Source of the DNA: Halorubrum vacuolatum
Lineage (GTDB): Archaea; Halobacteriota; Halobacteria; Halobacteriales; Haloferacaceae
DNA length: 61,039 bases
Assembly: GCF_900188065.1 (NCBI RefSeq)
Contig: NZ_FZNQ01000017.1
Coordinates: forward strand, 1-61,039
Direction: 5' to 3'
In this document: one piece after another, positions 16,218 through 51,105 of the stretch
Numbering within the stretch: the stretch's first letter is position 1
How the letters are laid out: each line of letters begins with the position of its first letter
Made by a program: the position numbers and the translations under genes
Notes under the pieces: model-generated
Told to the model about the DNA's origin: nothing
Seen by the model: only the letters and a program-made list of their open reading frames with translations
Database searches by the model: none

Positions 16218-19200
16218 TCAGCTTCCCGTGAGCAACACTTCGTCGGTGGGGTCTTGGTCCATCGTCAGCGGTGCCTCTCCATCTTTGGTGTAGTCTTTGA
16301 GGGCGGCCCGTAGGAGCGCCTGTTGTTTCTTACTGATCTCGATGTTCCCTCTCGCGGCGGCCTCGATCTGCACCGGAGGGAGCGTGACCTTCGGATGGGC
16401 GGCAAGGTTATCGGGCGTCGGGGGTGTCGCGTAGATCGTCTCGTCGGACGTGAGCTCGTGGTCTTCGGGTGGCTGTTCGACGTGAGCGGCGGCCTCCTCC
16501 GGTGTCATACCCCCTCCGGTGTCCTCGGTGTCTCCTCCCTGCTCGTCGGTGCTGGTGTCTTCAACCTCCTCCACGACGATCTCCTCGGCGGGAACGGCGC
16601 TGGTCGGGAGTGACTGATCGCCTTCTATCAGGTCGTTGAGCGCGGCCCGGATACGGTCGAGTTCCTCCTCGCTCGGAGTGAACACCCCATCTGCGAGCGC
16701 GTGGATGGTATCTTCTGACAGCTCCACTCGGGGGTCGTCAGCGAGACGTGCGGGTGTGGGCGGTTCGCGGTATTCGACGGTCGGCTCTGCAAGCTCGGGG
16801 GCGTCGTCTCGACCGCTGCCTTCGCTCCCTTCATGTTCCTGTTCGACGTCGGCTTCGCGCTCAGGCTCGTACTCTCCCGTAGACTGGCCTCCATCGGCTT
16901 CTGCGCCCTGTTGGACATCTACATCTGCGACTGCTCTCTCGTCTTCCTCGCCGCTCTCAACGGCGTCTGTCTGGGCGCTCTGTTCGTCGGTGTCGCCCTC
17001 GACAGGTTCCTCGGGGATGACGATCTGCTCGGAGAGGTCCTCGACGTCTTCGATGGCATCGCCCGCGACCGGCGAGAGGTCCGTGATCGCTTTCATCAGC
17101 GCGATGACCGTGTTGGTCCCCGGCTCTTTCTCGCCGGTCGCGATGGCCGTGATCTCCTCAGCGGTGAGGTCGACCCGGCTGTCTTCTGCGATACGGGCAG
17201 GCGTCGGTATCTGGTCGGCCTCTACCGGCTCCTCCTCGTGGGCGTCGGCTGGCGTGTCGTTGTGTTCCGCGCTCTCGTCGTTCGCTGGCGGCGTCTCGTC
17301 GTGTTCGGTGTCGTCTGCGTCGTCTTGTACCTCTTTGCTGGTGTCGTCTGTATCGGCCTCCTCGTCGCTCTCAGCGGCTTCTGTCTGGACGCCCCCTTCG
17401 GGAATGACGATCTCTTCGCGAAGGCGCTCTATTGGGTAGTCGTCGGTGAAACCGGTATTGCTGAGAATGACGTTCCTAATCTTCTGCTCACGCGGCCACG
17501 GTAGGCTGAGGTCGCCGGTCACGTAGTCGGCGATCTGTTGGGCCGTCAGTTCAACGCGCTCGTCAGCGGCGATCCGCGACGGCGTGAGCGCGTCGTCGTC
17601 AACGGGCGGGCCTTCCATCGGTTCGTCGCCCGACTCGTCGCTGTCGTCGCTCTCGTCGGCGTCCTCCTCTCCTGTACCTTCGTCGCCGTCGTCTTCTGAC
17701 GCCTCCTCTTCTTCTTCTTCTGTGTCTTCGTCGTCGGTTGTCGCTTCCACGTCGCCGTCTGTGTCGCCGATCTCCCCGACCGAGAGGTTCGACGCGCTGA
17801 CGCCGAGCTCATCAAAGAGTGGTCGGCACTCGCCACGGTGGTATATCTGCGGCTGGTTGTACTCCTCGTTGTCGCTGTCGGGGAAGATGATGATCTCGAA
17901 ATTGTCCGTGGTCGGCCACTCATCGAAGCGGGCTTCGGGAATGAACGGCCCACGGAACGGCACCCAGTTTTGGAGGATCCCCTCTTTGTCCGGGTAGTAT
18001 TTCTTCTCGCCGTCGACGTGGAGGACGTATTCTTCTTCGGATTTGTCGTACTCGTAGTAGGCCGGAACCGCGTACTTGTTGCCCTCGTGTGCTTCTTCGG
18101 GCGTGTCAAAGCGGGCAAACTCGATATTCTCCTCTCCGTGTGGTGTCTCGACGGCGGCAACGACGTCTCCGGTGTCTTTCTCTCGATACCAGATGGTCGA
18201 CCGATTCGTCTCACCGTCGCCATCGAGTTTAGGCCGGAGGGCAATCTGATCTTCACCTACGCGGTAGTCGCCTCCACCGTCGTTGTAATACCGGGGGTGG
18301 CCGTCCTCAGTCGGTGACTTCCGGAACGTAACCTCGTCACTAACTACCTCTGCACTTCTGGTGCCACCCTCCGTCTCGTAGATGACCTTCTCGGCGCGTT
18401 CCGCCCAGTAGGTGAACCCCCCATGCTTGGCCGACCCGTCTTTCACGGCGAAGACACACTTATCGCCGTTCTCCATCGCTTTCCGGAGGTTATTGAACGT
18501 CTGGAACGGGTACTTGATCGTCGACGTCTCCGCTTCGATCGCTACGTCGTCGGGCCCCGCAAAGTTCCACACGCCGGGGTACTTCTCGCGAAGCTCGTCC
18601 TGCCGCTCGTTGATCGCATCAAGCGTCTTACTTCGGGAGAGGTTGTCGTCCACGTCGGTCGGGTCGATTGGCACTTCTGCAACCCCGTCCGGCGCTTCTT
18701 CTCCTTCCTGTTCGGGAAGCCACGTCTTGTAGCCGATTTGTGTGAACGCGACGTAGGCTTCACCGAGGATCCAGCGGTGGTCGTCGCCCCCGCCGGAGCC
18801 GGCGCTTCCCGTATCTTGCTGAAGGACGATCCCCCGGCCTTGCGAGGTGAGCCGGATTGAGGTATCCCCGTCTGAACGCTGTGTCTCGGCATACGCTTCG
18901 TTGACCTGCTCGTAGATATTCGACAGCTCTGAGAGGCTATCTACGGCGGCGTCGGGGAGTCTGACCAGTAGCTCTTGTTTCGCGTCTTCAAGCGAAACGT
19001 ACTCGTTGGGGTCTTTTCCGGCCCTGAGTCGTGCGGCGAAGATGCTCTCAAGGACGGCATCGAGATGGCGTTCCACGACCTCTTTCGCGCTGGTGGGCTG
19101 GCTTGCCTGCTGTCGACCGGGGGCGTTGGCGGGGGCATTGCCGGGCTCGGTCGACGGGAGTAGCCCGCCGGGTGAGGTGTCGCGGTCTTCCGCGCCTTTG

Positions 19201-21185
19201 ATGTTCGGATCGTCAGGTGTCGGTGTCTGGTCGACAAGCTGTTGAAGATACATCTGCCTCTCATCTCCATCTGCCATCGCAGCGTATCTGCCGATGCCGG
19301 TTTCCCACCGGCCTTGTCCTTCGTTGAACAGAAGGTTTTGGTAGACCTCTTCGTCGCTTCGCCGTCTCCGGCCTAACTTCTTGAGGCTGGCGTCGATCGC
19401 CGCTTGGGCCTCGTCTGTCGTTCGGAGAGGCGGGAATGGCGGATAGATATACACGCGGAACGCATCGGAGCGTTCCATGTTCTCGCTGATCGTCGTTCGC
19501 ATCCACACATGGTAGTTCACCTCCTCGGTGAGATCCTGCGGATCAAGCCCCAACTGCGTGTTGTAGGTTCTCGCGGATTTCTGATCCCCGGGGTTGAACG
19601 ACATGATCGTATCACAGTTGGTCGTGATCGCTTCCACGACGTTACTCGGGAGTTGGGCGGGGTACTGGTTGGCGAGTGTCATGGACAGCCGGTATGACCG
19701 GCTCTCGGAGATCATCGCGGGGATCGTTTCGTCCCCGAGTGCGAGGTTGTCAAACTCGTCACAGAACAGGTAGAAAGGTTCGCGCTCATACTGTGACTTC
19801 ATCGACCGGGCACGGATATGTGACCAGATACGCCGAATGACGGCCATGCCGAGCATCTGTTTGAGCTCGCGTGGCTGTGAGCCCATCCGGACGATGATGA
19901 TCTTATTGTTGTCGATCGCCTCGGGGATGTTGATCCCACCGGAACGGAAACCGATCATGCGCCGGGCGACCGGGTTTTGTATCCACGGGAGGAACCGACC
20001 GAGCAGCGGCTCAAGGTCGTCTTCGCTCATTTTCGAGATGGTATCGAGATGGGGAGCGACGAACCGGAGGTCTGCCTTGTGTGCCCGGGCGGCGAACTCG
20101 TAGCGTGACGCCTCGGATTTAAGCACATAATACATATCGACAAGGTTCATCTCCGGGGCATCATCGGGCGTCTTTGCGTTATACAGGTTCATCGCGGTGA
20201 TGAGCGAGCCCGCAACGCGGTCCATGCGTGGCCCCCAGTAGTCGTCGCTGGCGGCGAGCATCTTTTTCAAATCATCCACCAGCGAAGCGAGCGCGGCGTC
20301 GTATTCGTCGTCGTCGGGATCGAGATTGAGGGTGATGAAATTGAACCCGGAGAGGTAGTCACCGCTGGCTCCGGGCTCGATCCATACCACGTCGTCAAGC
20401 CGGTGTTCTGGGATCGTCTGCATCAACCGGAAAGAGTCGTCACCCTTCGGGTCGATGAAGCACAACCCGGCTCCCGATTCAATGAGTTGTCGGGCGTCGT
20501 TAGTCAAGAGCGTGGACTTCCCGTAGCCGGTGACGCCGAAGACGGCGCGGTGTCGGAAGAGGTGGTTTTTGTCTATCGAGGCATCTCGACCGTTCCGAGT
20601 ACCCTTCCCGACGAACAGCGGGGCGTCTGGATGGTCGCGTGGTATGTCTCGGAGGGCTTCTTCGGCCTCGCCGGTCGCATACACTTCGACCCCATCTTGC
20701 CCGGGTGGTAACTCATTGGGGTCGATCTCCTCGGGGATACCGAATGATTGGAGTTCTGCGCCGTACCGTTTTTTCCGCTTGACCTCGGTGTAGGCGTACT
20801 CAAACTCCTCCATCTCATACACCATGTCGATGACGCCGACGAATTCCCCGTGGATCTGGTGAATATCGTCACGGTCGCCACCGGAGATGTTGTCAATATC
20901 GAGTACCTCTTTCCCGCTTTGTAGGCCACTAACCAGTTCTTCGGGTCTGGGGTTCATGTCCGGTGGGACACACACGGGGGTTTTGCTATCTACCGTGATC
21001 TGGTCGACATGAAGGAGTACGGACCCTATGTGTTCGCACAGCCGTTTCCGATCTTCAAGGCTGAGATTTTTGCTCCTGATCGCTTCTATCGCCTCATCAA
21101 TTCGCTGGCGTGTATGCCGGACGTCGATTTTTCGGATGGGCTCACCATCGGGCTCATCGTCGTCTCCGCCGAATATATCGAACAT
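16218..21185 (-). CDS. Coupling-protein-type (VirD4/TraD-like) conjugation ATPase with C-terminal repeats
   Basis: A very long protein of 1655 residues. Residues about 180-600 form a HerA/VirD4-type ATPase: Walker A GVTGYGKST (217-225), the following ARQLIESGAGLCFIDPKGDD, and Walker B FYLFCDEFDNLA (471-482). There is a coupling-protein-like middle section, then a unique region (about 700-1150) and a highly acidic linker. The last 450 residues contain four spaced copies of a roughly 40-residue module (TPSRIAADERVELTAQQI, TPARIAEDSRVDLTAEEI, TPARLADDPRVELSEDTI and TPDNLAAHPKVTLPPVQI). It probably feeds DNA to a type IV secretion-like channel; no membrane segment is obvious. The upstream gene 21201-22919 is 15 bp away and codirectional. 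Confidence 0.85.
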   Translation of the reverse strand: MFDIFGGDDDEPDGEPIRKIDVRHTRQRIDEAIEAIRSKNLSLEDRKRLCEHIGSVLLHVDQITVDSKTPVCVPPDMNPRPEELVSGLQSGKEVLDIDNISGGDRDDIHQIHGEFVGVIDMVYEMEEFEYAYTEVKRKKRYGAELQSFGIPEEIDPNELPPGQDGVEVYATGEAEEALRDIPRDHPDAPLFVGKGTRNGRDASIDKNHLFRHRAVFGVTGYGKSTLLTNDARQLIESGAGLCFIDPKGDDSFRLMQTIPEHRLDDVVWIEPGASGDYLSGFNFITLNLDPDDDEYDAALASLVDDLKKMLAASDDYWGPRMDRVAGSLITAMNLYNAKTPDDAPEMNLVDMYYVLKSEASRYEFAARAHKADLRFVAPHLDTISKMSEDDLEPLLGRFLPWIQNPVARRMIGFRSGGINIPEAIDNNKIIIVRMGSQPRELKQMLGMAVIRRIWSHIRARSMKSQYEREPFYLFCDEFDNLALGDETIPAMISESRSYRLSMTLANQYPAQLPSNVVEAITTNCDTIMSFNPGDQKSARTYNTQLGLDPQDLTEEVNYHVWMRTTISENMERSDAFRVYIYPPFPPLRTTDEAQAAIDASLKKLGRRRRSDEEVYQNLLFNEGQGRWETGIGRYAAMADGDERQMYLQQLVDQTPTPDDPNIKGAEDRDTSPGGLLPSTEPGNAPANAPGRQQASQPTSAKEVVERHLDAVLESIFAARLRAGKDPNEYVSLEDAKQELLVRLPDAAVDSLSELSNIYEQVNEAYAETQRSDGDTSIRLTSQGRGIVLQQDTGSAGSGGGDDHRWILGEAYVAFTQIGYKTWLPEQEGEEAPDGVAEVPIDPTDVDDNLSRSKTLDAINERQDELREKYPGVWNFAGPDDVAIEAETSTIKYPFQTFNNLRKAMENGDKCVFAVKDGSAKHGGFTYWAERAEKVIYETEGGTRSAEVVSDEVTFRKSPTEDGHPRYYNDGGGDYRVGEDQIALRPKLDGDGETNRSTIWYREKDTGDVVAAVETPHGEENIEFARFDTPEEAHEGNKYAVPAYYEYDKSEEEYVLHVDGEKKYYPDKEGILQNWVPFRGPFIPEARFDEWPTTDNFEIIIFPDSDNEEYNQPQIYHRGECRPLFDELGVSASNLSVGEIGDTDGDVEATTDDEDTEEEEEEASEDDGDEGTGEEDADESDDSDESGDEPMEGPPVDDDALTPSRIAADERVELTAQQIADYVTGDLSLPWPREQKIRNVILSNTGFTDDYPIERLREEIVIPEGGVQTEAAESDEEADTDDTSKEVQDDADDTEHDETPPANDESAEHNDTPADAHEEEPVEADQIPTPARIAEDSRVDLTAEEITAIATGEKEPGTNTVIALMKAITDLSPVAGDAIEDVEDLSEQIVIPEEPVEGDTDEQSAQTDAVESGEEDERAVADVDVQQGAEADGGQSTGEYEPEREADVEQEHEGSEGSGRDDAPELAEPTVEYREPPTPARLADDPRVELSEDTIHALADGVFTPSEEELDRIRAALNDLIEGDQSLPTSAVPAEEIVVEEVEDTSTDEQGGDTEDTGGGMTPEEAAAHVEQPPEDHELTSDETIYATPPTPDNLAAHPKVTLPPVQIEAAARGNIEISKKQQALLRAALKDYTKDGEAPLTMDQDPTDEVLLTGS

Positions 21186-21200
21186 AGGTCGTCGTTAGAG

Positions 21201-22919
21201 TTACCGGCTGTTTTCGGAGTTCTTCTGCTGGTCGACGTGATCTACCCCATCGTCTGCGGCCCCCCATGACGTCTCGGGCTCATTATCGCCGCTCTCACTA
21301 CCTGTGCCGCGTCTGGTTATACCGAAGACGTCGATTGTCCCGTCCGAATCGTCCTGTGAGCCCGCTGGCTCGGGCTCCGTTGGGAATGGGCCTTCCTGAT
21401 AGATACTCTCGACAGGCTCATCGGGCGGTGCACCCGGTTGCGCTTCCGAGCCTTTAACCAACGGATCGGAATCGTCAGCCCCATTCTGTTGATTAAATTG
21501 CTCTGCGTCAGTTTCGAGGGCATCGTCTCCTTCGCCTACTGCATCGGCCCCTGACGCAGTTGCACCTTGCTCGGGGCTTTGCCCGTTTTGATTCGCGGTC
21601 GGGTCTGACTGCCCGTTCTCTTGTGTACGCAGTGGGTGGCTCCGGGGACTCGTCCTATGTCTGCTGTGGTGTGTTTCATTGCTCGCCTGAGTCGCCCATT
21701 GGTTGACTCCCGGGTGCCGGTCGCCGTTGCGTGTTTCCTCACGCTTTTCCTCGTCTCTCCGCCCGGCCTCGGCGGGCACACCGGGGCCAGTCTGCTGTTT
21801 CGCCCAATCCACGACCGGCGTGTTGATCTCCTCATTCGGTATGTGGGCGATACTTCCGAGTGCTGAGACGGGTTGGAGAACGGTGGGCGCTCCCGGGCCG
21901 AACTTAACGCGACTCAGCCAGCTAATGTCGTGGGTTCGCCCGGCGACTTGCTTGAGGTGATACGGTATATCCTCGGGATCAATCGAGTACGGCTCAAGCC
22001 CCTGCTCGGTGAATGAGTTGTAGTATTTCTCAAAGTCGCTCGCGACCGTGTTGCAGCGCCGCTCGGCGATCTCCTGATACGGCGAGATCGCGACGACGCG
22101 GATAGTCATGTAGTAGCCTTTCGCGCCGTGGAGTTTGTCGACAATTTTGGCGCTACGCTTCCGTTTCGATCCGGGGTCGCGAAGCTCCCACCCTTGGATG
22201 TGGTTGCCGGTGAGCTCGCCTTCTTTGATCTGGGCGGCGGCCTCGGTGACGTTCCGCCCGTAGGGGAGCTTCTTGGTCCAGACGTCGCGTGCGGGCTCGA
22301 AGATGGTCTGGACCATGACTCGACAGTCTTCGGCGGTGACGCGGATGCCGTCTGAGGTTTGGTCTTCTTCGACCACCATATCGGAGGTAATGTCGCCGTA
22401 GGGGTCGACCTCGAACTCCTCCTCTGAGATTTTGCACTTGATCGGGTAGAAGAACGGCTTTTTTAGCCGCATCCCGGCCATTGCGACGTAATCCCCTTTC
22501 TCAAATTTGGGGAACATGTCGTCGGCTTCGGCGATCTGGGAGTTGGGGTAGTTTTTGCGTATCTGCCGCTCGAATTGGTTGGCGTCGACGCGGGTATCGG
22601 GTTTGAGGTAGAATTGTAATTTCCCACCGTCATAGACCATTTCGTAGGAGTGTTGGTGGGAGTCGGTCTGGATGAATTTGAATCGGCCAAAGCCAATCTT
22701 TCTCTCGCGGGGGTCGTGGACGGTTTCGTATAGGTTGATGCTGGCGTCCATGCCCTCGTTTTCTCGGGGTGGTCGCACGCGGAGGCGTGGCCCGGAGGTT
22801 TGTTCGGCAAGTTCGATGCCCTCTTTGTAGGTTTCGTACAGTTCGTCGTCAACTTGGATCGCCGGATAGACGCTCGTCTCTTCAACGAGGGCGTCGGCGA
22901 TCTTGTTCAGGATTTCCAT
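21201..22919 (-). CDS. Partner of the coupling ATPase (conjugation module)
   Basis: A 572-residue protein with no ATPase motif. Residues about 1-370 are folded: GFGRFKFIQTDSHQHSYEM, YGRNVTEAAAQIKEGELTGN and IPNEEINTPVVDWAKQQ can be seen. The rest is a Gln/Asn/Asp/Glu-rich disordered tail. The 'IAHIPNEEINTPVVDW' pattern resembles the N-terminal domain that, in some bacterial coupling proteins, lies on the same chain just before the ATPase. Here the two would be separate genes, 15 bp apart. The start was placed at the ATG at 22919 because GGTGAG lies 8 bases before it; 22934 is the alternative. The split-protein reading is inference. Confidence 0.7.
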   Translation of the reverse strand: MEILNKIADALVEETSVYPAIQVDDELYETYKEGIELAEQTSGPRLRVRPPRENEGMDASINLYETVHDPRERKIGFGRFKFIQTDSHQHSYEMVYDGGKLQFYLKPDTRVDANQFERQIRKNYPNSQIAEADDMFPKFEKGDYVAMAGMRLKKPFFYPIKCKISEEEFEVDPYGDITSDMVVEEDQTSDGIRVTAEDCRVMVQTIFEPARDVWTKKLPYGRNVTEAAAQIKEGELTGNHIQGWELRDPGSKRKRSAKIVDKLHGAKGYYMTIRVVAISPYQEIAERRCNTVASDFEKYYNSFTEQGLEPYSIDPEDIPYHLKQVAGRTHDISWLSRVKFGPGAPTVLQPVSALGSIAHIPNEEINTPVVDWAKQQTGPGVPAEAGRRDEEKREETRNGDRHPGVNQWATQASNETHHSRHRTSPRSHPLRTQENGQSDPTANQNGQSPEQGATASGADAVGEGDDALETDAEQFNQQNGADDSDPLVKGSEAQPGAPPDEPVESIYQEGPFPTEPEPAGSQDDSDGTIDVFGITRRGTGSESGDNEPETSWGAADDGVDHVDQQKNSENSR

Positions 22920-23282
22920 GTTTATTCTCACCATTTTCCAGGAGTTGATGCTCTATTGGACTCAACACCGACGCTAACAGAAGTCCTAAAATCTGGCGTT
23001 CTGTTAATTCAAAATATCTAGGTGTACCGGGTCGTTTATACTGTTTCACTGGTTTCATCATATGAATCACAACTCCTTTTCATACGTTTTCAACCAATGT
23101 TTTACAGAAAGAGATACTTAGAACATTTTCCCCGATTATCACAGTTGATTTTTTTCTGAGCGTTAAAGAAACAGAGGTGGCCCTAGGCCTTTTTCTTTAT
23201 GTATATATGAGAGAAAATTAGACAGTGACTCAGGGATTAGAAATTAATTAAATCCTCAAAAGGTAGAGAATTCTGTCAGCTA
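22920..23282. other. AT-rich spacer with promoter-like sequence
   Basis: No gene is seen. TTTATGTATATATGAG at 23194-23209 and AT-rich runs on both sides suggest promoters for the conjugation genes. The region separates them from the wHTH gene at 23283. Confidence 0.4.
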
Positions 23283-27097: not shown

Positions 27098-28147
27098 TCA
27101 ATGGCCAGCAGCGGGATGTGTGTCGTCATCTTGATCGTCCTCAATAGGTTCGTAGTCGGCGTTTCTACCCACCGGGGTGAATCCAGGGACGTAGCTGAAG
27201 CGTTTCCCTGGTTCTCCAGAAAACATCCATGGAAACGAGCCCCGAAAATCGCGAGCCCGATATTCTGGACGCCACTCCTGAAGTTCCAGTGTTGGTTTCG
27301 CCACTTGTGGGGCGGGCAATTCCGCGCGCTCAAGATCTTTGAGCGTGAGAACCCGCACTTCGAGTTCGCGTGCCAGTTTCTCTGTCCGAGGCGTTAGTTC
27401 CGTCGTGTGACAGAGAATAGGCATCGCCCGGCAGGCAAATGCGACTGTACACAGTCGGAACAGCGTCGATGGGGTGATCAGGTTGCTCGTCCAGTCTTTG
27501 CACTCCCCGACGACCCAGTCGCTGGGTGTCTGTTGCTTTTCACTTCGCCTTGCGACCACATCAATCTCCAGACTGAAGAGATGTTGGCGTGTATCCGCAT
27601 GGTACCCCCAGCGTGTAAGTGCTCGTTGGAGTTGGTACTCAAGCCACCGACCCTTATTCTCGCCACGGCCCCCGATATGTGGGTCGACATTGTTGAGACT
27701 CACGTCTTCCAGGTCAGCGAGTACTGGACTCTCTGTCGGTACTGCGGGTATGATGTCGCGTATCGCCGTGGCGTACTCAAGAGCTGTTGTGAACTTCTCA
27801 TCGGGGGCGTCATCGGAGTGGTTCGCCGCCGGTTGCTCAGTCTGGAGTGAGTGAATCAACCAGCACAACTGCCGTTCGATGTGAGTGAGCATCTCCGCGT
27901 AGTCGTCCTCCGGATCCGAACTTTGACTCTCCTGTGAGTCAGCGTCGTGGGTTGGTTCAGGAAGAATCTGCTCAGCCTCGTTAATAGGCTTATTAGTGTG
28001 AAACAGAAGCCGACGAGCGAACATCCGTTGGTCGGTGGTAAGCGTGTGGTCGGTTTCGAGTGTTTCACGAAACGACTCGATTGTTCCCGTGAGCGAGAAG
28101 AAATGGTCGGCGTACCCGTCCGGGAGTGAAGGTGCATTCGATGTCAT
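27098..28147 (-). CDS. PD-(D/E)XK nuclease-like protein
   Basis: A 349-residue protein. The C-terminal half contains the restriction-endonuclease-like fold: E in GRWLEYQLQRALTRWGYH, D in LEIDVVARR, E and K in VVGECKDW, followed by the Gln/Ser-poor helix LITPSTLFRLCTVAFACRA. The N-terminal half (about 1-150) is helical and acidic with no named domain. Mrr and Holliday-junction-like enzymes share this core and cut DNA. Its ATG overlaps the stop of 28144-28836 by 4 bases, so it is the last gene of a coupled operon. Restriction, repair or defence are all possible. Confidence 0.8.
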   Translation of the reverse strand: MTSNAPSLPDGYADHFFSLTGTIESFRETLETDHTLTTDQRMFARRLLFHTNKPINEAEQILPEPTHDADSQESQSSDPEDDYAEMLTHIERQLCWLIHSLQTEQPAANHSDDAPDEKFTTALEYATAIRDIIPAVPTESPVLADLEDVSLNNVDPHIGGRGENKGRWLEYQLQRALTRWGYHADTRQHLFSLEIDVVARRSEKQQTPSDWVVGECKDWTSNLITPSTLFRLCTVAFACRAMPILCHTTELTPRTEKLARELEVRVLTLKDLERAELPAPQVAKPTLELQEWRPEYRARDFRGSFPWMFSGEPGKRFSYVPGFTPVGRNADYEPIEDDQDDDTHPAAGH

Positions 28148-28836
28148 TCTGTGAGTGGACTCGGCGTAAAGTGCTGCGGTGTCAGGGACGTTTCTGAAAG
28201 CGACTGGACAGCTGGCTGTCCCTGTTGCTTGATGTGATGGTAGAGATCCGTTTCATCGATGATACGACACCAGTGGTCGCTGTCGGCCTCTCTGTACCGC
28301 AGTTCGCCGTCGACAGCCACAAGGACACCCTGCTCGGTTTTCGCCGTCGCATCGAAAACGAGTGCCGGTGGATCAGGATTGTGCCAGCTGTCACGAATCC
28401 ACTCAAGCAGCGTATCAATCGTCGGTGGATCAACAGGATTTGGATATCGTGGCTCTGCTGGAGCTCGAATCGCGACAGCGTTGACGCTGTCGCTCCCACA
28501 GACTCGCCAGCTCTCACCTGTCCACTCGAGTTCACGGCGGGTCCAGCTGTTGCCGCCACTATTGGGGTCGAAAACGAGTCGCCGTGGTGGGGTAGTAGGC
28601 GGATCCCACTGGAGAACACACGAGCCACCGTCAGGGAGTGTTCCGTCAGTTGTTCGGCGGTGGTGCTCGAACAGCACAGCATCGATCTGCGCCCGTGTGC
28701 GCCGTAATGTGGCGATAGGGTCTGTAGTCGGCGTGGTTGTTATCTCGTCAGCGTCAGCGACCGCCTCAAGCAGTCGGTGGAAGCGGGAATCGATGTCTCG
28801 TAACACTTCGAGCGCGCGCTGGTGACTCGCTGTCAT
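28144..28836 (-). CDS. Hypothetical operon protein
   Basis: A 230-residue soluble protein with no recognised domain. The N-terminal 65 residues are helical (RALEVLRDIDSRFHRLLEAV, ATLRRTRAQIDAVLFEHH). The rest looks beta-rich with Trp-containing motifs (CVLQWDPPTTPPRRLVFD, WTRRELEWTGESWRVCGSD). It overlaps both neighbours by 4 bases (ATGA), which indicates tight translational coupling between a DUF7344-type wHTH protein and the nuclease-like protein. It may be a specificity or partner subunit for the nuclease; this is inference from position only. Confidence 0.7.
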   Translation of the reverse strand: MTASHQRALEVLRDIDSRFHRLLEAVADADEITTTPTTDPIATLRRTRAQIDAVLFEHHRRTTDGTLPDGGSCVLQWDPPTTPPRRLVFDPNSGGNSWTRRELEWTGESWRVCGSDSVNAVAIRAPAEPRYPNPVDPPTIDTLLEWIRDSWHNPDPPALVFDATAKTEQGVLVAVDGELRYREADSDHWCRIIDETDLYHHIKQQGQPAVQSLSETSLTPQHFTPSPLTE

Positions 28837-29216
28837 GTGGTTGCCTCAGTGTCCGGCTTGTAGCAGGCTGTCTGCAACCTGCGGATGTATTCTGCGAGTG
28901 GTTCGGTTGCGTCAGTTGAGGCGACTGTTTTCGAGCGAGTGTCGTAGTCGACAGCACCGACGTTATCGAGCTTCTTGAGATGTCTCTGTGTGAGCGAAAC
29001 ATAGACTGTTGTACGCTGGTCACTGCTGATCCTACTGGGATCGGTCCCGTTTTCGATCGCGGCGATCTCGACGGCAAGATCGCCTGCAGTAATTGTGTCA
29101 CTGGTTCGTGATAATGAAAGAAGCACGCGACGCCGACGGCTGTTCGAGAGTGCCTCGAACGCCCTGTCAGGATCCATTGGGATCGCGAGCGATGCCGTCG
29201 AGTCTTCATCAATCAT
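28833..29216 (-). CDS. DUF7344-type winged-helix protein
   Basis: A 127-residue protein. DRAFEALSNSRRRRVLLSLS, then SDTITAGDLAVEIAAIE and YVSLTQRHLKKLDNVGAVDY, then the wing DTRSKTVASTD, is the complete haloarchaeal DUF7344 HTH pattern. It is predicted to bind DNA and probably controls its own operon. The ATG at 29216 was chosen (MIDEDST); the upstream gene's stop at 29209-29211 overlaps it by 8 bases. Sequence beyond DUF7344 is short. Confidence 0.82.
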   Translation of the reverse strand: MIDEDSTASLAIPMDPDRAFEALSNSRRRRVLLSLSRTSDTITAGDLAVEIAAIENGTDPSRISSDQRTTVYVSLTQRHLKKLDNVGAVDYDTRSKTVASTDATEPLAEYIRRLQTACYKPDTEATT

Positions 29217-29523
29217 ACTGTCCTCCCAAGGAGAGTTTCTCGTGCGTGACCGGGAGTCCGCTCCTAGTCCAGTCTGTCTGGTGCACCCGCTCTGTTTTGC
29301 TCGGAATAAACCACTCAACGGAATCGACGAATTCCTCAAACACCAATCCGTCTGCGACGCTGTCCAGTCTGAGCATGCCGCCGCGTGATTGGGTTGTGTA
29401 CTGTCCGGTCTGGTCTGTTAGCGGGTCGTGTTCTGAAGCGGTTTCCCCGGTCTCGATGACCGTCAGATGCCGTCCAGAGGTAGAGTTATCACTCCTGACC
29501 CTGTCGTTTTGTCCTGCTGTCAT
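29209..29523 (-). CDS. Hypothetical first gene of the operon
   Basis: A 104-residue protein starting MTAGQNDRVRSDNSTSGRHL, with a C-terminal half LDSVADGLVFEEFVDSVEWF. It overlaps the DUF7344-type start by 8 bases and reads as normal acidic haloarchaeal sequence. The start at 29523 is a guess; the frame extends to 29592. No family was recognised. It is presumably co-transcribed with the three downstream genes. Confidence 0.5.
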   Translation of the reverse strand: MTAGQNDRVRSDNSTSGRHLTVIETGETASEHDPLTDQTGQYTTQSRGGMLRLDSVADGLVFEEFVDSVEWFIPSKTERVHQTDWTRSGLPVTHEKLSLGGQYD

Positions 29524-29792: not shown

Positions 29793-31190
29793 CAGTACCT
29801 CACAAAGCCGGTTAGTTAGAACGTCTGCTTGCAGAAGGTGTGTTCAAAACCCAGCAAGCAGACAGTAAAATCCACGAGGACCAGCTTCTTAACTTCCTCG
29901 TCAACCGGCTTGACGAGGAAGTTGCACTCAACCTCGCCAACAACGCTGAAATCGATGCTGAAGACATCTATGAGGTCCTCGTCGGCGCTACCGCCGACGG
30001 GACCTCGATCTCGACGCTGTGCAACTCCAGTGAAGACTCCCCATCTGCAAACACGATCCTCTACCATCTGCGGACGAAGTTCGAGCCGGAACGGCTCGAA
30101 CGAGTCGCAAACACGCTCCTCCGGCGAGATATCGTCGAATTGCTCCCCGAGCAGGTGGAGGTCTGCGCAGACCTCCACCTGCGACCCTACTACGGTGACG
30201 AAGACGACACAGACAGCCTCTACCACTCGGTGGCGAAGCGTGGAACCACCGCCTTCCACGCCTACGCCACACTCTACGCGCGTGTGAAGAACAAACGTTA
30301 CACGCTGGCGGTGCGCCGTCTCGAAGACGGCGATACCGCCAGCAGCGTCCTCGCTGAGTTCCTTGGTGTGCTTGACGGCCTTGACACCGAGGTCAAGGCC
30401 GTCTACCTTGATCGCGGATTCTACGACAGCAAGTGTCTCACGCTGCTTCAGGCGCATAACTACGCGTACGTGATACCGATCATCCGATGGGGTGAGACGA
30501 TTCAGCAAGAGCTCTCGGAGGGGTGGAGCCGTGTCATTCAGCATGATCTGACAGGGAAACTCGACGGTCATAGCTGGACCGTCGAGTTTCCCGTCTACAT
30601 CGATTGTACGTACCTGAACGGGAAGTATGACGAGAACGGCGTGGCGCGTCACGGCTACGCCGCTGACGCACCGTTCATCAACTCACCACGCGACGCCCGA
30701 TACCACTACTCGAAACGGTTTGGTATCGAATCGAGCTATCGATTATCCGAGCAAGCGATAGCGACAACAACAACACGAGATCCAACAGTACGGCTGCTGT
30801 ACGTCGTGGTGAGTCTGCTGTTACAGAACGTCTGGCGGTACCTTCACTACGAATATGTGGCGACGCCCCGCCGAGGCGGGCGTCGCCTCTGGTGGTGGCC
30901 GTACAAGGAGTTCGTCAATATGATTCGACGTGCCGCGTGGACGGCCCTCGCGGTTCGTCGGGCCGTCCCCGCGAACCGGCCACCTGACGACCGGTTCCAC
31001 CGGTAGTCACTGACCGGGGACGCCGCCTTGTGAGTGGCGACGCTGTCGCGTCGGCGGCTAACCGCCGCCGACAACGACATCTCTCCGCCTCTCCGTCTGT
31101 AATTCCCCCGTCGAAACCGGCAGTACAACTGCTTCGACACAGAACTCAAGCCGCAGAAACAGCCAGCCGAGGATGCTTTGTGAGGTACTG
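29793..31190 (+). mobile_element. ISH3-type insertion sequence, copy 1
   Basis: Perfect 15-bp terminal inverted repeats are present: CAGTACCTCACAAAG (29793-29807) and CTTTGTGAGGTACTG (31176-31190). Length is 1398 bp with one transposase gene, as in copy 2 (52574-53950, 1377 bp). No clear target duplication is seen. A second internal inverted pair (GTCTGCTTGC/GCAAGCAGAC) lies at the start of the gene. The 170-bp tail after the gene is shared between the copies. Confidence 0.85.
29840..31006 (+). CDS. ISH3-family transposase, copy 1
   Basis: A 388-residue DDE transposase of full family length. Recognisable family blocks are QADSKIHEDQLLNFLVNRLD, VEVCADLHLRPYYGDEDDTD (first Asp), VKAVYLDRGFYDS (second Asp) and KRFGIESSYRLSEQ (Glu). 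The C-terminus ends VPANRPPDDRFHR. It is expected to be active. Compared with copy 2 it differs throughout, so the two are different members of the group and not a recent duplication. Confidence 0.92.
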   Translation: MFKTQQADSKIHEDQLLNFLVNRLDEEVALNLANNAEIDAEDIYEVLVGATADGTSISTLCNSSEDSPSANTILYHLRTKFEPERLERVANTLLRRDIVELLPEQVEVCADLHLRPYYGDEDDTDSLYHSVAKRGTTAFHAYATLYARVKNKRYTLAVRRLEDGDTASSVLAEFLGVLDGLDTEVKAVYLDRGFYDSKCLTLLQAHNYAYVIPIIRWGETIQQELSEGWSRVIQHDLTGKLDGHSWTVEFPVYIDCTYLNGKYDENGVARHGYAADAPFINSPRDARYHYSKRFGIESSYRLSEQAIATTTTRDPTVRLLYVVVSLLLQNVWRYLHYEYVATPRRGGRRLWWWPYKEFVNMIRRAAWTALAVRRAVPANRPPDDRFHR

Positions 31191-31490
31191 CGGCTGGCTT
31201 CCCAATCGCAGAGCGCGAAGACAGGGTACCAATATCTATCAGCTCGCTGGTAGTCCACTCTCGTCGATCCCCTGCGGAGCCCCTGTTTGGTGTCGATCCC
31301 TCGGCTCCGCCCTGAAACCCCCGCTACGCGGCCGACTACCTCTACGTTCAAACTACCGTACCCTAATTGTGTGAATTCGAGTTGAACGTAGAACGGCCTC
31401 AGATTCCGTTATAGGGTCTCTAAGTGGTCTTAGCTCCGATAGCTGAACGTAGAAGCAAAATATATTTGACTTGTCTCTATATGAACATAG
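31191..31490. other. Spacer between the ISH3 element and the repeat array
   Basis: No gene is seen. The stretch has short inverted words (CTGCGGCTGG/CCAGCCGC across the element end) and becomes AT-rich after 31380. Confidence 0.4.
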
Positions 31491-31493
31491 CCA

Positions 31494-32003
31494 AAATCCG
31501 CTGCCGTCTTGCTATATGAAAACTTATTGGCCGCCATACATAATATATATGATAACGTCCAAAATCCGCCGCCGTCTTGCTATATTACCGTCTCAAAACA
31601 GTATTTTGGGGAAATATATGGGGGTTTTAAAGAAGTTGCTGCCGTCCTGCTATATGAGAAAATATATGGGGGTTTTAAAGAAGTCGCCGCCGTCTTGCTA
31701 TATGACGAATTTCAAAAAGTGGCGTTTCGAACCGATCGGGTCCCGAGATGCTCCTCAAGAAAATATATGGGGTTTTTAAAGAAGTCGCTGCCGTCTTGCT
31801 ATATGAGAAAATATATGGGGTTTTTAAAGAAGTCACCGCCGTCTTGCTATATGACGAATTTCAAAAAGTGGCGTTTCAAACCGATCGGGTCCCGAGACGG
31901 TCCTCTCGAAAATATATGGGGTTTTTAAAGAAGTCACCGCCGTCTTGCTATATGAGAAAATATATGGGGTTTTTAAAGAAGTCACTGCCGTCTTGCTATA
32001 TGA
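31494..32003 (+). repeat. 48-bp tandem array with 53-bp inserts (higher-order 149 bp)
   Basis: Six 48-bp units occupy 31610-31657, 31658-31705, 31759-31806, 31807-31854, 31908-31955 and 31956-32003. Each starts GAAAATATATGGGG and ends GCCGTCTTGCTATATGA. After every second unit stands a 53-bp block (31706-31758 and 31855-31907) starting CGAATTTCAAAAAGTGGCG. The true period is therefore 149 bp, repeated two and two-thirds times. Two more partial copies of the unit end occur at 31494-31519 and 31561-31587. The units abut directly, so this is not a CRISPR array. It may be a centromere-like, origin-like or promoter array. Confidence 0.85.
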
Positions 32004-32150
32004 GTGGTTTTCTCCCTGACTAACACTCGCTATTGTGATAGGTATGTGCTGATAGCTGGAGTGAACGGGTGTTGAGAGGTACGATCTCCCACCTATTTCT
32101 ATCCTTCACGGTATTTAAATGGGTCGCGAGAATTCTTCTTCAGTTTCGTT

Positions 32151-32258
32151 TTGCGTAGGAACTGCGAAGGCTCTCTCTAGGATTTTCTCTGGCTTGCGTA
32201 GGAACTGCGAAGGCGCTCTCTAGAATTTTCTTTGGCTCGAATAGGAACTGTGAGAAAT
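32151..32258 (+). repeat. 43-bp tandem repeat, two and a half copies
   Basis: TTGCGTAGGAACTGCGAAGG starts units at 32151 and 32194 (43 bp each), with a diverged third copy from 32237 (GAATAGGAACTGTGAG). It lies 150 bp after the 48-bp array in a stretch without genes (32004-32426), which suggests one non-coding locus. Confidence 0.75.
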
Positions 32259-32426: not shown

Positions 32427-32774
32427 TTAGCTCGATGGGAACTCTGGTTCTTGGTCGAGGTCGATCCTGAGACCGCCATCCACGTTGTCTCCGCCGAGAC
32501 TTTCGTCCCACTCGGGCCGGTACCGTATCGTCTGTTCCGGCATCATGCCTCGATCTTTGAAGAATCCGCTCGCGGCTATCACGGCGGAGTTGTCTTCGTT
32601 GTCGATCTTCGTAACGAAGTCTCGGTCAAAGTACTGGTCGAGTGGGATCAGCGCGATCTCATTGTCGTCTTCGTCGTAGGTGAAGAGGACTGCCTCTTTG
32701 CCATCGAAGTATTTCCGTCTGAAGAGTGGCGTGAGTCGGTCGACGACGAGCTTGGGGCCTGACGCGAACGGCAT
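32427..32774 (-). CDS. Hypothetical acidic protein
   Basis: A 115-residue protein of normal haloarchaeal composition. PKLVVDRLTPLFRRKYFDGK, LFTYDEDDNEIALIPLDQYF and FVTKIDNEDNSAVIAASGFF suggest two short beta-rich repeats, somewhat like a bacterial-type AbrB or replication-accessory fold, but no family was recognised. It starts 1 bp from a divergent broken vapC relic and follows the repeat array, so it might act on that array; this is speculation. Confidence 0.55.
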   Translation of the reverse strand: MPFASGPKLVVDRLTPLFRRKYFDGKEAVLFTYDEDDNEIALIPLDQYFDRDFVTKIDNEDNSAVIAASGFFKDRGMMPEQTIRYRPEWDESLGGDNVDGGLRIDLDQEPEFPSS

Positions 32775-33102: not shown

Positions 33103-33738
33103 TTACGTGCCCTCGATGAGTCGCTTCAGCTGTTCCGGCGGAACTGCACCCCGAGCGGCGTAGCCCTCATAGACAAACGTCGGAACGCCCGTTACACCGT
33201 CCTGCTGTGCTTCAGAAAATTGGTCGCGGAGACGATCGCGAAGCTGCCCGTCTGCGATCGCCGTGCGAATTTCGTCTCCGTCTAATCCGGATACATCCGC
33301 AATATCGGCTAAGACATCGACATCGCTGATGTCTCGTCCATCGATCCACAGCGCCTCGAAAATCGCTTCATCGAAGGCGAGCCATTGCTCAGGATACTCT
33401 TCGTGTACGTAGAACGAAGCACCTTGTGCCGCGAAGGAATCCACGTCCTCCGGAAGGTCCTCGAGGTCAAGCATCTCAGTAGCGTCGTACTCCTATTTCA
33501 ATCGGGCGACGTTCTGTCGTACTTGATCGAAGTACGCTTCGTTCTTTCCATCGTCGACCGAGTGATCGATCTCGCCGTCGGGGCCGCGCTTTTGACTCCG
33601 AAGATCGAACGGCTGCCAGTCGATTTTGAGGGCACTGTCGCGTGTTTCCTGATACTTCTCTAATGACCGACGACCAAGGTAACAAAATGGACACACGTAA
33701 TCGGAATATACTGTGATATGACCGCTGTTCTCAACCAT
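33103..33738 (-). pseudogene. DsbA/FrnE-like oxidoreductase interrupted by a TAG codon
   Basis: One continuous frame of 211 sense codons carries a single in-frame TAG at 33493-33495. Before it: VYSDYVCPFCYLGRRSLEKY, with the CPFC thioredoxin-fold active site of DsbA-type proteins. After it: EYDATEMLDLEDLPEDVDSF, EALWIDGRDISDVDVLADIA and GVTGVPTFVYEGYAARGAVP (cis-Pro loop). Both halves fit one protein that would reduce, oxidise or isomerise substrates in the cytosol. The stop is a single base change from CAG, GAG or AAG. It is either a recent pseudogene or is read through. Confidence 0.8.
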
Positions 33739-33975: not shown

Positions 33976-34299
33976 ATGTCCAAGGAGCCACCAACGCCGC
34001 CAGCGGAACTCCCGGCAGCGATCGTTACCGCACTCAACGGCTACTCGCCCACCCAGCTCCGGCACGTCGCCAGATACGCGGAGGCACTAGCAGAGTACAA
34101 AGCTCGCGAGGCCCGCTTCGAGGAGGAATTAGATGAGAACGATGTCGACGAGGTGCCTGATGACCTCCCAGACGACGTCCCGGCGAAGGCGACGATCACG
34201 ATCAAGGAGATCAACGACAACCGCTACTACTATTGGCAGTGGCGGGAGGGAGACAAAATCAAATCCAAATATAAAGCGCCAGTGAGTCCCGACAAATAG
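33976..34299 (+). CDS. DUF6788-type protein, copy 1
   Basis: A 107-residue acidic protein. The N-terminal half is helical (LPAAIVTALNGYSPTQLRHV, RYAEALAEYKAREARFEEEL). The C-terminal half carries KATITIKEINDNRYYYWQWR, then EGDKIKSKYKAP, a conserved Tyr/Trp-rich block of DUF6788 proteins as I recall them. The function is unknown; the block may bind nucleic acid or a sugar. A close paralogue lies at 36765-37088, and both genes have the same operator. The copies flank the MNT-type nucleotidyltransferase pair, which suggests a duplication around that module. Confidence 0.82.
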   Translation: MSKEPPTPPAELPAAIVTALNGYSPTQLRHVARYAEALAEYKAREARFEEELDENDVDEVPDDLPDDVPAKATITIKEINDNRYYYWQWREGDKIKSKYKAPVSPDK

Positions 34300-36764: not shown

Positions 36765-37088
36765 ATGTCCTACAAACCCCCGACCCCACCAACGAACCTC
36801 CCGGCGGAGATCGTCAACACGCTCAACGAGTCGGACCCGGAACAGCTCCGAGACGTTGCGACGTACGCTGAAGCGCTCGCCGAGCACAGGGAACGAGAGG
36901 CCCGTCTCGAGGAATCGGCAGATCAAGAAGAGGTCGAGGAGCGGCCAGACGATCTCCCGGACGACGTCCCTGCCAAAGCGACAATCACGATCAAGGAGAT
37001 CAACGATAATCGCTACTACTACTGGCAGTGGCGGGAGGGTGATTCAGTGAAGTCGAAGTACAAGGGTCCGGTCAACCCGAACGAGTAA
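36765..37088 (+). CDS. DUF6788-type protein, copy 2
   Basis: A 107-residue paralogue of 33976-34299, identical in its central block (KATITIKEINDNRYYYWQWR). The N-terminal helices differ (LPAEIVNTLNESDPEQLRDV). The ATG is 14 bp after the operator half-site. It is transcribed toward the replication origin and is divergent from the MNT operon. Confidence 0.82.
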   Translation: MSYKPPTPPTNLPAEIVNTLNESDPEQLRDVATYAEALAEHREREARLEESADQEEVEERPDDLPDDVPAKATITIKEINDNRYYYWQWREGDSVKSKYKGPVNPNE

Positions 37089-48781: not shown

Positions 48782-49141
48782 TGTCTGTTACAACACTCAA
48801 CGAGCAAATAATTCTAACGGATACTATATTGTTCACTTCACCGTGACGATACTCACGGTCGGCAACGCCCACTATTATGCCCTGGGAGCGTTATCGGGGT
48901 GTGAGGTCTCTTACCTGGTCGGCGATACTGTCCACAAACTCGCTGATTGCACTCCCATCTCATACCGTTTGACAGGGTTTTCGACGATCGGGGTTCAATA
49001 CACTGACATGAAATTAGCGCTTTGCACGAGAATTCAGTTAAAATAAAACCTTTCAAAACAATATTTAACTCAATGAAGTTCTCTACCTAAAGAGAAAATC
49101 AATTGGACAATTATATACTGCTTCGGCTATGTAGGTTCTTC
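48782..49141. other. AT-rich spacer before the second SMC-related gene
   Basis: No gene is seen. A sharp drop in GC content begins near 48780 and continues to about 51780, covering the SMC-related/RdfA pair. Confidence 0.5.
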
Positions 49142-51079
49142 ATGGTCGAAGAACAACTTGCACGAATAGAGGCAAACAACATTGGTGGAATCTCAAACAC
49201 TGAAGTCGAAATCCCACCTGGGACAACTATTCTTTCGGGAAGAAATGCAACAAACAGAACATCTTTCCTACATGCGATAATGGCTGCAATGGGAAGCTCG
49301 AAAGTATCAGTAAAAGGTGACTCCGAAACAGGGTATGTTGAACTTACCATCGGGGACGAAACTCACACGAGAAAACTTAAACGTTTGAATGGCACCATAC
49401 AGATGAACGGAGATCCCTACCTCCAGGATTCAACTGTAGCAGATCTTTTTTCATTCTTGTTAGAGACTAACGAAGCCCGAAGAGCGGTTGTTCGTAGTGA
49501 TAATTTGAGAGACCTAATTATGAAACCGATTGATACTGATCAAATAGAACACAAAGTTAAAACTTTAGAAGGGAAACGAGACGAGATAGAAGAGGAACTT
49601 GATAAACTTGAGAATTTAAAAAGTGATCTACCCGGATTAGAGGGGCAACGGAACAGCCTCAAAGATCAAATAGAAAATAAGCGTGAGGAACTCGTCGAGA
49701 AAGAGTCAGAAATTGAATTGATTGATGCTGATATCCAAAGTTCCCGCAATCAAAAAGAAGAATTAGAAGAACTACTTGGCGACCTCCAAAATCTCAGATC
49801 CGAATTGGAAACTGTTCGATCTAATATCGAAATCGAGCAGGAAAGCATTGAATCTCTCAAGAAAGAAAAATCTCACCTGTCGGAAGAATTTGATAAATTA
49901 TCGGATTCGCCAATGGGTGAATATGAAGAATTAGATGAGAGAATTAGTAAATTAAGGGAAAGAAAACAAAATATTGAAGGAAAAATCAGTAATACCCAGG
50001 ATGTGGTTGATTTTAACAAAAGAATGTTGGAGGAAGAAAGCCGTGCCTCAATCAAATCATCTAATTCATTCGGTGACGAAACTGAAGCTGTAACCAATCA
50101 ACTAATCGAGGATGAGCGTGTTAACTGTTGGACTTGTAGAACGGATGTTGCAAAAGAAAAAATTAACGAAACAATCGACGAAATGCAGTCAGTCGTCCAG
50201 GACCGCGTAAATAAAGTTTATGAAATTGAGGGATCACTGTCGGACCTTCGCGAAAAACAAAATACTCTCAAACAGCAACAGCAACGCCGAAATGATATAG
50301 AACAAAAGTTGGAAAATATTTCCGAAGAAATAGAAGATCGGGAAAATAAAATCGATGAACTACGTGAAAACCGAGAGCAACTCAGTCAGGATGTTGAGAC
50401 AACAGAGGAAAAAGTGGAAAAATTGGAGTCGGAAGAATTTTCGGAAATCCTTGATCTCCATAAGGAAGCTAATCAACTAGAATTTGAGCTGGGTCAGCTT
50501 GAATCAGAACTTGATAATGTAGTTGAGCGTATCTCCGACATTGAAGAACGTCTTGATGAAGAAACAGAGCTCCGGAACCAATTAGACGAGATTAGGGAAG
50601 AACTCGAGGAACAGCGAACGCGTATTGAACGTATTGAGCAGGAAGCAGTAGGGGAATTCAACGATCATATGGAGGATGTCCTATCGTTACTCGCGTACGA
50701 GAATCTAGAACGGATCTGGCTTGAACGAATTCGAAAAACCGCTCGAGAAGGTCGTCAAACAGTTGAGAAAACAGTTTTTGATTTACATGTTGTTAGAAGG
50801 ACTGAGTCAGGAACGACTTACGAAGATACTATTGACCACCTTTCTGAGAGTGAGCGTGAGGTGACAGGACTAATATTCGCATTAGCAGGTTACTTAGTCC
50901 ACAACGTTTATGAAAAGGTACCTTTCATGTTATTAGATTCGTTAGAAGCAATTGATTCGGAACGGCTGGCTGATCTTATAGACTATTTCTCCGATTATCC
51001 ACAATATTTAGTTGTTGCACTACTACCAGAAGACGCCCAGGCACTGTCAAATCCGGATACCTTTATTTCAGACATATAA
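49142..51079 (+). CDS. Archaea-specific SMC-related protein, copy 2
   Basis: A 645-residue homologue of 4775-6721. The Walker A position is GRNATNRTS, the hook is CWTCRTD, the signature is LSESEREVTG and the Walker B is LLDSLEAID, all as in copy 1. The coiled coils are full of Glu/Lys/Asn (ENKREELVEKESEIELI), and the gene is AT-rich, unlike copy 1, so it has a different recent history. The ATG at 49142 was chosen: an earlier TTG at 49103 adds 13 hydrophobic residues not in copy 1. The RdfA-type gene is convergent here, not downstream in the same direction. Confidence 0.88.
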   Translation: MVEEQLARIEANNIGGISNTEVEIPPGTTILSGRNATNRTSFLHAIMAAMGSSKVSVKGDSETGYVELTIGDETHTRKLKRLNGTIQMNGDPYLQDSTVADLFSFLLETNEARRAVVRSDNLRDLIMKPIDTDQIEHKVKTLEGKRDEIEEELDKLENLKSDLPGLEGQRNSLKDQIENKREELVEKESEIELIDADIQSSRNQKEELEELLGDLQNLRSELETVRSNIEIEQESIESLKKEKSHLSEEFDKLSDSPMGEYEELDERISKLRERKQNIEGKISNTQDVVDFNKRMLEEESRASIKSSNSFGDETEAVTNQLIEDERVNCWTCRTDVAKEKINETIDEMQSVVQDRVNKVYEIEGSLSDLREKQNTLKQQQQRRNDIEQKLENISEEIEDRENKIDELRENREQLSQDVETTEEKVEKLESEEFSEILDLHKEANQLEFELGQLESELDNVVERISDIEERLDEETELRNQLDEIREELEEQRTRIERIEQEAVGEFNDHMEDVLSLLAYENLERIWLERIRKTAREGRQTVEKTVFDLHVVRRTESGTTYEDTIDHLSESEREVTGLIFALAGYLVHNVYEKVPFMLLDSLEAIDSERLADLIDYFSDYPQYLVVALLPEDAQALSNPDTFISDI

Positions 51080-51105
51080 TAATGCTTGGGTGAAGCCCAA
51101 TTCAA

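What the first reader, a model, noticed from the sequence alone, without database searches (positions are those of the whole stretch)
31494..32258. Higher-order tandem array (48+48+53 bp) next to a 43-bp repeat
Six 48-bp units in three pairs, separated by two near-identical 53-bp blocks, make a 149-bp period; a second, unrelated 43-bp tandem repeat follows 150 bp later. Units carry TATA-like and GCCGTCTTGC words. No CRISPR features, no protein frame (53 is not a multiple of 3). It could be a centromere-like partition site, a second origin, or a promoter array. It is not explained by any neighbour.
Basis: seen in the sequence. Interest (0 to 1): 0.7.

Follow-up and report, generated by a model that had tools for sequence, protein, structure and literature searches.

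The report
Phased eight-site array on haloarchaeal plasmids
The repeats are one copy of an apparently undescribed DNA address found on plasmids of salt-loving archaea: eight binding sites held at strictly fixed, helix-turn spacings, with a label that differs from plasmid to plasmid, often lying beside genes for a DNA-binding protein and a DNA-pumping motor, so it is probably where the plasmid is gripped to be moved between cells or shared out among them.

Summary
The tandem array is real (31478-32003), but it has eight sites, not six: the first two share only a 21-bp core. The window's repeat sequence is unique, yet the architecture is not. I found about 30 arrays on plasmids and some chromosomes of several haloarchaeal families, with start-to-start spacings 68, 68-70, 47-48, X, 47-48, X, 47-48. 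X is 68, 79/80, 89, 101 (window) or 109/110: 68 plus whole helical turns (free fit 10.5 bp). Each site is a constant core flanked by the same plasmid-specific hexamer (TATATG here). A second conserved noncoding block lies to the left. In complete loci the array sits between a ribbon-helix-helix (RHH) gene (8 of 8 hits in 38 genomes lie beside arrays) and a small array-linked protein (32427-32774 here) followed by a VirD4/FtsK-like ATPase. Hexamer and RHH strand residues co-vary, including one swap. In this window ISH3 sits where the RHH gene should be, and RHH and ATPase were not found in the genome. Best reading: a plasmid-specific docking site for an RHH adaptor and a DNA motor, most likely a transfer origin; a centromere is the main rival. 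No description was found in the papers searched.

The parts
31478..32003 (+). Eight-site array: cores at 31499, 31567, 31637, 31685, 31786, 31834, 31935 and 31983 (start-to-start 68, 70, 48, 101, 48, 101, 48); sites 3-8 form three 48-bp pairs separated by 53-bp blocks
   Evidence: same architecture in about 29 other loci
31651..31668 (+). Example of facing plasmid-specific hexamers: TATATG at 31651 (end of site 3) and TATATG at 31663 (start of site 4), 12 bp apart. All TATATG: 31478, 31513, 31546, 31615, 31651, 31663, 31699, 31764, 31800, 31812, 31848, 31913, 31949, 31961, 31997
31223..31378 (.). Conserved left block: AGGGTAC (31223-31229) / GTACCCT (31358-31364) inverted repeat, hairpin CTATCAG-CTCG-CTGGTAG (31236-31253), CTCGGCTCCGCC (31300-31311), AT-rich box ACCCTAATTGTGTGAATTC (31360-31378)
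   Evidence: compensatory change of the outer stem in the window (AGGGTAC/GTACCCT against AGGGTTC/GAACCCT elsewhere)
31340..31353 (-). Short repeat in inverted orientation (CTCTACGTTCAAAC)
   Evidence: similar layout seen in L139 and L141
31381..31454 (+). Two direct short repeats GTTGAACGTAGAA (31381-31393) and GCTGAACGTAGAA (31442-31454), 61 bp apart, around an imperfect palindrome TTATAG-GGT-CTCTAA (31409-31423)
   Evidence: about 62 bp apart in relatives, with a plasmid-specific 3' part
32151..32250 (+). 43-bp repeat, 2.3 copies; occupies the place where several relatives have repeats with a period that is a multiple of 11 bp
32427..32774 (-). A1-family protein (115 aa here; N-terminal part of the family not recognisable); array-linked family without a Pfam or NCBIfam match
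29793..31190 (+). ISH3 element (transposase 29840-31006; 16-bp terminal repeats 29793-29808 / 31175-31190; no target duplication seen) in the place where relatives carry the RHH gene
27098..29339 (-). Left operon shared by several array loci: PD-(D/E)XK-like protein (27098-28147), 230-aa protein (28144-28836), DUF7344-type winged-helix protein (in 28833-29339)

Best explanation
It is a plasmid-specific DNA docking site. SHOWN by comparison: eight sites with a constant core and like plasmid-specific hexamers at both ends, at spacings fixed to whole helical turns, so that the hexamer ending one site and the hexamer beginning the next always face the same side of the helix (spacing minus 36 bp = 1, 3, 4, 5, 6 or 7 turns); a second conserved block to the left; and genes found beside such arrays: an RHH protein on the left, the A1 protein on the right, then a large P-loop ATPase. 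INFERRED: RHH dimers read the hexamers and hold neighbouring sites together, folding the array into one ordered complex; A1 or another partner sits on the constant core; the complex recruits the ATPase, whose sequence motifs resemble VirD4/TraG/FtsK-type DNA pumps. MOST LIKELY USE (inferred): the cis-acting site for plasmid transfer or mobilisation, an oriT- or clt-like site. Arrays without the genes would be mobilised in trans by a co-resident plasmid with the same hexamer. The window's array is such an orphan: RHH and ATPase genes are missing and an ISH3 element stands in the RHH position.
For: Architecture conserved in about 30 loci of several haloarchaeal families, including loci found only through the left block and then all shown to have the array. 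Spacings occur only at 46-48, 67-70, 79-80, 89-90, 101 and 109-110; free fit of the period 10.51 bp, p = 0.005 against random spacings. The two hexamers of a site match within a plasmid beyond permutation (p about 2e-5 on 14 representatives). RHH family: 8 hits in 38 genomes, all beside arrays, none in the control genomes without a detected array (array positions). RHH strand against hexamer: M at strand position 6 with TATTTA (L061, L095, L134), ISSY with TAATTA (L063), ISSS with TGATTA (L096), ITSR with GTATAC (L100), ISGY with TCATTA (L151); L136 has an RHH body like the TATTTA group but an ISSY strand and a TAATTA hexamer, a swap. ATPase beside 9 arrays, one of them a remnant; two arrays were discovered by starting from the ATPase alone. 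ATPase affinity: TraD family E = 1.2e-4, Walker A plus DPKG motif aligned with the window's own TraG-like protein, P = 6e-4, same PHROG as that protein. Orphan or partial arrays share the hexamer with a gene-bearing array in the same genome (G015: L133 and L152; G006: L137 and L095; G164: two arrays of L096). RHH accessory factors with subtype-specific oriT sites, and oriT mimics on other plasmids, are established in staphylococci (PMC8136818).
Against: No relaxase was recognised among the neighbours tested and no nick site is known; PLSDB types the array plasmids as non-mobilizable. The ATPase has no Pfam match and only weak profile matches; it is missing from most loci. Many orphan arrays lack every partner gene. 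RHH proteins also serve partition systems, and the RHH fold itself is assigned from sequence pattern and one weak Pfam hit. The hexamer reader is inferred from covariation in few independent classes. In this window's genome no RHH or ATPase relative was found, so function here may be lost.
Confidence: 0.5

Rival explanations
1. Plasmid centromere: the RHH protein is the centromere-binding protein, the array is the centromere, and plasmid-specific hexamers are incompatibility determinants; the motor is a ParA (encoded elsewhere on the plasmid) or, in two loci, a CetZ tubulin.
For: RHH centromere-binding proteins and repeat arrays are typical of partition systems (general knowledge). Carriers are large, presumably low-copy plasmids. 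A ParA gene lies near the array in L064, and ParA is encoded on both small array plasmids. A CetZ gene lies next to the RHH gene in L151/L152.
Against: ParA is far from the array in other plasmids and has its own partner gene next to it; CetZ occurs in only 2 near-identical loci. Plasmids and contigs of one cell can carry same-hexamer arrays (L062 and L065; L133 and L152; L137 and L095), and one megaplasmid carries two arrays, unexpected for partition incompatibility.
Confidence: 0.3
2. Replication origin or copy-control iterons: the short repeats around the AT-rich box plus the eight long sites bind an initiator.
For: Layout inverted site - AT-rich box - direct sites resembles an origin with an unwinding element; Orc1/Cdc6 lies within 9 kb in six loci.
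Against: The Orc1/Cdc6 genes are 4-7 kb away and not consistently linked; the window's orc4 region is homologous to many plasmids in which the array was not found; arrays are present twice on one replicon and inside a 4.48-Mb contig.
Confidence: 0.1
3. Regulatory hub: an operator array for the left operon (DUF7344, 230 aa, PD-(D/E)XK) or the RHH gene, with RHH as repressor.
For: RHH proteins are often autorepressors (general knowledge); left genes are transcribed away from the array.
Against: Eight phased sites over about 440 bp are far more than an operator needs; the array persists where RHH and left operon are absent.
Confidence: 0.08
4. Non-functional tandem duplication: units 3-8 are a slippage product.
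For: Sites 3-8 of the window are nearly identical (149-bp period, 94%), so the last expansion or gene conversion is recent.
Against: Eight sites with the same spacing in diverged sequence across families; spacer lengths quantised by helical turns; divergent flanks with conserved cores.
Confidence: 0.02

Closest known systems
pWBG749-family oriT with the RHH factor SmpO (Staphylococcus; PMC8136818)
   Same: RHH protein encoded beside the site; subtype-specific hexamer-like sites at fixed spacing; specificity set by the N-terminal strand; the same site occurs alone on other plasmids
   Different: Two RHH sites per oriT there, about sixteen hexamers in eight phased units here; a relaxase and an oriT function are known there, none shown here; sequences unrelated
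F/pED208 oriT with TraM and TraY and the coupling protein TraD (PMC12117103)
   Same: RHH proteins on repeated sites at the transfer origin, associated with a VirD4-type ATPase
   Different: IHF, relaxase TraI and far fewer sites there; homology not detectable
clt loci of actinobacterial plasmids with the FtsK-like TraB (double-strand transfer without relaxase)
   Same: Plasmid-specific direct repeats near a DNA-pumping ATPase gene, no relaxase (recalled from general knowledge, not tested)
   Different: 8-bp repeats read by TraB itself there; a separate RHH reader and rigid 10.5-bp phasing are proposed here
Archaeal partition system AspA-ParB-ParA of pNOB8 (PMC5120986)
   Same: Archaeal plasmid, site-specific small protein acting on a cis site
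   Different: AspA is a winged-helix protein on one 23-bp palindrome and spreads; no such array; ParA-based motor in the same operon

Membership tests
RHH-dependent transfer origin (oriT) | RHH accessory protein gene beside the site | tested here: met
   8 of 8 RHH hits lie beside arrays. RHH fold assigned from sequence pattern plus a weak Pfam RHH_1 hit (E = 0.043); not in the window itself, where the gene is missing
RHH-dependent transfer origin (oriT) | Coupling-protein-type ATPase linked | tested here: inconclusive
   ATPase beside 9 arrays; weak TraD match, weak profile match, no PDB match
RHH-dependent transfer origin (oriT) | Relaxase gene and nic site | tested here: not met
   No relaxase among the neighbours annotated or scanned; nic site not testable by sequence
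RHH-dependent transfer origin (oriT) | Promotes DNA transfer in cis | not testable with these tools
   needs mating experiments
Plasmid centromere (RHH type) | RHH centromere-binding protein and repeat array | tested here: met
   (array plus linked RHH gene; binding not tested)
Plasmid centromere (RHH type) | ParA/ParM/TubZ-type motor encoded in the same cluster | tested here: inconclusive
   ParA near in L064 only; CetZ in L151/L152 only; elsewhere ParA distant
Orc/iteron replication origin | Initiator gene adjacent to the repeats | tested here: not met
   Orc1/Cdc6 4-7 kb away in 6 loci, not found within 9 kb in the others
CRISPR array | Identical repeats with unique spacers of near-constant length | tested here: not met
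   Spacers repeat and take several fixed lengths; no neighbour matched a Cas operon in the scans made
Structured RNA family (Rfam) | Covariance-model match | tested here: not met
   no match at gathering thresholds; weak covariation in the left block only

The most novel reading that the evidence does not exclude
The first recognised cis-acting transfer site of haloarchaeal plasmids: a helically phased eight-unit array that a plasmid-specific RHH adaptor folds into one complex and hands to a VirD4/FtsK-like DNA pump without a relaxase, giving haloarchaea a compatibility code for plasmid mobilisation.
Probability: 0.35. Interest if true: 0.9.

Novelty: new variant of a known kind. Interest (0 to 1): 0.76.

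Why it matters
How plasmids move between haloarchaeal cells, and how they are sorted at division, is poorly known. This element names a concrete DNA site, its likely reader and a candidate motor, and predicts from a six-letter label which plasmids should share machinery. The spacing rule (whole helical turns with otherwise free choice of length) is an unusually clean natural demonstration that a protein complex needs its DNA sites on fixed faces of the helix.

Tried and rejected
Exact scans for the unit or left box in genome and viral contigs gave only unrelated bacterial or phage chance hits. The unit as coding sequence: rejected. Backbone comparison with orc4/polB plasmids did not lead to the array. 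Rfam: nothing. Structure of the A1 protein from the single window sequence: pLDDT 46, unusable, so no fold search was made. A1, RHH and ATPase against PDB sequences: no credible relatives. Short repeat as a binding site near orc4: only chance-level matches. Literature: searches for haloarchaeal oriT, iterons, conserved noncoding repeats and plasmid partition found no description; the library holds open-access papers only. CetZ as the general partner: only two near-identical loci, so kept as a lead.

Full report
1. The observation. The window holds a tandem array at 31478-32003. TRF reports a 149-bp period (31612-32003, 94% matches, score 693) and a separate 43-bp repeat at 32151-32250. Searching the conserved word with up to three mismatches gives eight, not six, cores, all on the + strand, with 0.02 expected by chance. 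The two extra copies (31499, 31567) share only the core with the others. Core starts are 68, 70, 48, 101, 48, 101 and 48 bp apart. No frame is open through the array and the differences between copies show no codon pattern. The sequence is single-copy in its genome, and no relative was found in the other close genomes by BLAST, in 391 other genomes of the order by exact pattern, in the genus with three mismatches beyond scattered single hits, or in plasmid records by BLAST.

2. Breaking through sequence divergence. The flanks are conserved even though the array is not. The left flank (31302-31451) and the gene at 32427-32774 both matched a Halobacterium noricense plasmid in the same order. Reading the stretch between them in that plasmid and in plasmids of Halorubrum ezzemoulense, Haloarcula sinaiiensis and Halobacterium hubeiense showed arrays of eight cores with nearly the same spacing. 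A profile of the right-hand protein (A1) found further loci, again with eight cores as a rule. A model of the left block only, which knows nothing of the array, found more stretches in the order. Each of the ten read carries the array: eight sites as a rule, ten in L139, fewer where the contig ends. Two more came from starting with the neighbouring ATPase alone and two from a class-wide search, giving about 30 arrays in several families, on plasmids and in at least one 4.48-Mb contig. Some of these are near-identical to each other, so the number of independent cases is smaller.

3. The rule of the spacing. Across the measured arrays spacings fall only at 46-48, 67-70, 79-80, 89-90, 101 and 109-110 bp. 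Sites 1-2 and 2-3 are 67-70 apart (79 in L065/L133), partners in a pair 46-48, and the gaps between pairs take one value per array as a rule. A free fit of the six spacing classes gives 10.51 bp per turn, p = 0.005 against random values. The window's unusual 101 is thus the common 79/80 plus two turns.

4. The anatomy of a site. Each site is: hexamer - C-rich stretch - AATCC - GCCGTCTnG - hexamer. The two hexamers are alike within a plasmid and differ between plasmids: TATATG (window), GTATAC, TCATTA/TCATGA, TATTTA/TATATA, TAATTA/TAATGA, TGAATA. A permutation test supports the match of the two ends (p about 2e-5 on 14 representatives), although the TGATTA/TAAACA plasmids (L060, L064, L072) and L140 do not fit it. 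In a pair the facing hexamers are 12 bp apart; over longer gaps they are 3, 4, 5, 6 or 7 whole turns apart.

5. The left block. About 230 bp of noncoding DNA left of the array is conserved: AGGGTTC ... GAACCCTAATTGTGTGAATTC, where the outer inverted repeat is kept in the window by a compensatory change (AGGGTAC/GTACCCT), a small hairpin, and two short direct repeats (GGCTGAAC plus a variable tail) about 62 bp apart (61 in the window) around a TTATAG-N3-CTCTAA palindrome. The tails again are plasmid-specific but vary independently of the hexamers, which suggests a second reader. Further left, the strand is strongly pyrimidine-rich in most loci.

6. The neighbours. In array orientation: on the right A1 (most loci, some broken), then an ATPase of 1000-1250 aa (9 loci, one a remnant); on the left an RHH protein (about a dozen loci, some remnants), then a DUF7344 / 230-aa / PD-(D/E)XK-like operon. 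The RHH profile hit 8 times in 38 genomes and all 8 lie beside arrays; the control genomes without a detected array have none. RHH strand residues follow the hexamer, and the broken RHH gene of L136 has the body of the TATTTA group but the strand (ISSY) and hexamer (TAATTA) of the L063 type. The ATPase has Walker A and DPKG motifs, a weak match to TraD (E = 1.2e-4) and shares a PHROG with the window's own TraG-like protein at 16218-21185. Two loci (L151, L152) have a CetZ gene next to the RHH gene.

7. The window's copy. ISH3 (29793-31190, no target duplication seen) lies where the RHH gene should be, the ATPase is missing, and A1 has lost its family N-terminus. No RHH or ATPase relative was found in the rest of the genome. 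The array itself has been homogenised recently. It is an orphan, as are several others; in G015, G006 and G164 orphan or partial arrays share the hexamer with a gene-bearing array of the same genome.

8. Interpretation. That this is a protein-docking site specific to each plasmid I regard as well supported (about 0.85). That RHH reads the hexamers is likely (about 0.7). What the complex is for is open: transfer (about 0.5) fits the ATPase, the orphans with matching labels and the precedent of SmpO/oriT (PMC8136818); partition (about 0.3) fits RHH and repeats; replication and regulation are less likely. No relaxase was found, so a transfer site would have to be of the relaxase-free kind or use an unrecognised nickase.

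9. Novelty. RHH-read repeat sites are a known kind; an eight-unit array with helical-turn quantised spacing, paired plasmid-specific labels and archaeal partners is, in the open literature searched, undescribed.

Noticed in passing
L151:4110-5282 and L152:4149-5426: CetZ (tubulin/FtsZ family) gene between the RHH gene and the DUF7344 operon, next to an array; possible tubulin-based partition module.
   Followed up: partly
window 4076-6721 and 49103-51750: Two gene pairs of an archaea-specific SMC-related protein and an RdfA-type protein on one contig; the second lies in an AT-rich stretch (about 38-41% GC).
   Followed up: no
window 16218-22934: TraG/HerA-like 1655-aa protein plus a 577-aa partner, both matching the same PHROG: a separate transfer-like module on the contig.
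   Followed up: partly
window 33976-34299 and 36765-37088: Two paralogous 107-aa genes upstream of orc4; related genes occur near ten of the array loci.
   Followed up: partly
window 33103-33738: DsbA-type gene broken into two frames.
   Followed up: no
L060, L061, L063, L138 left flanks: About 1 kb of noncoding, strongly pyrimidine-rich strand left of the array in most loci, except where an IS element sits.
   Followed up: partly
window 31223-31364: Covarying outer stem and hairpin with G-U type changes on the + strand hint at an RNA or single-strand structure in the left block.
   Followed up: partly
window 7700-8914: TnpB-family RNA-guided nuclease gene; homologues lie near two array loci (L098, L100).
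   Followed up: no
L138, L139, L140, L141: Most divergent arrays, including one with ten sites and spacers of 89 bp; useful for tracing how arrays grow by pairs.
   Followed up: partly
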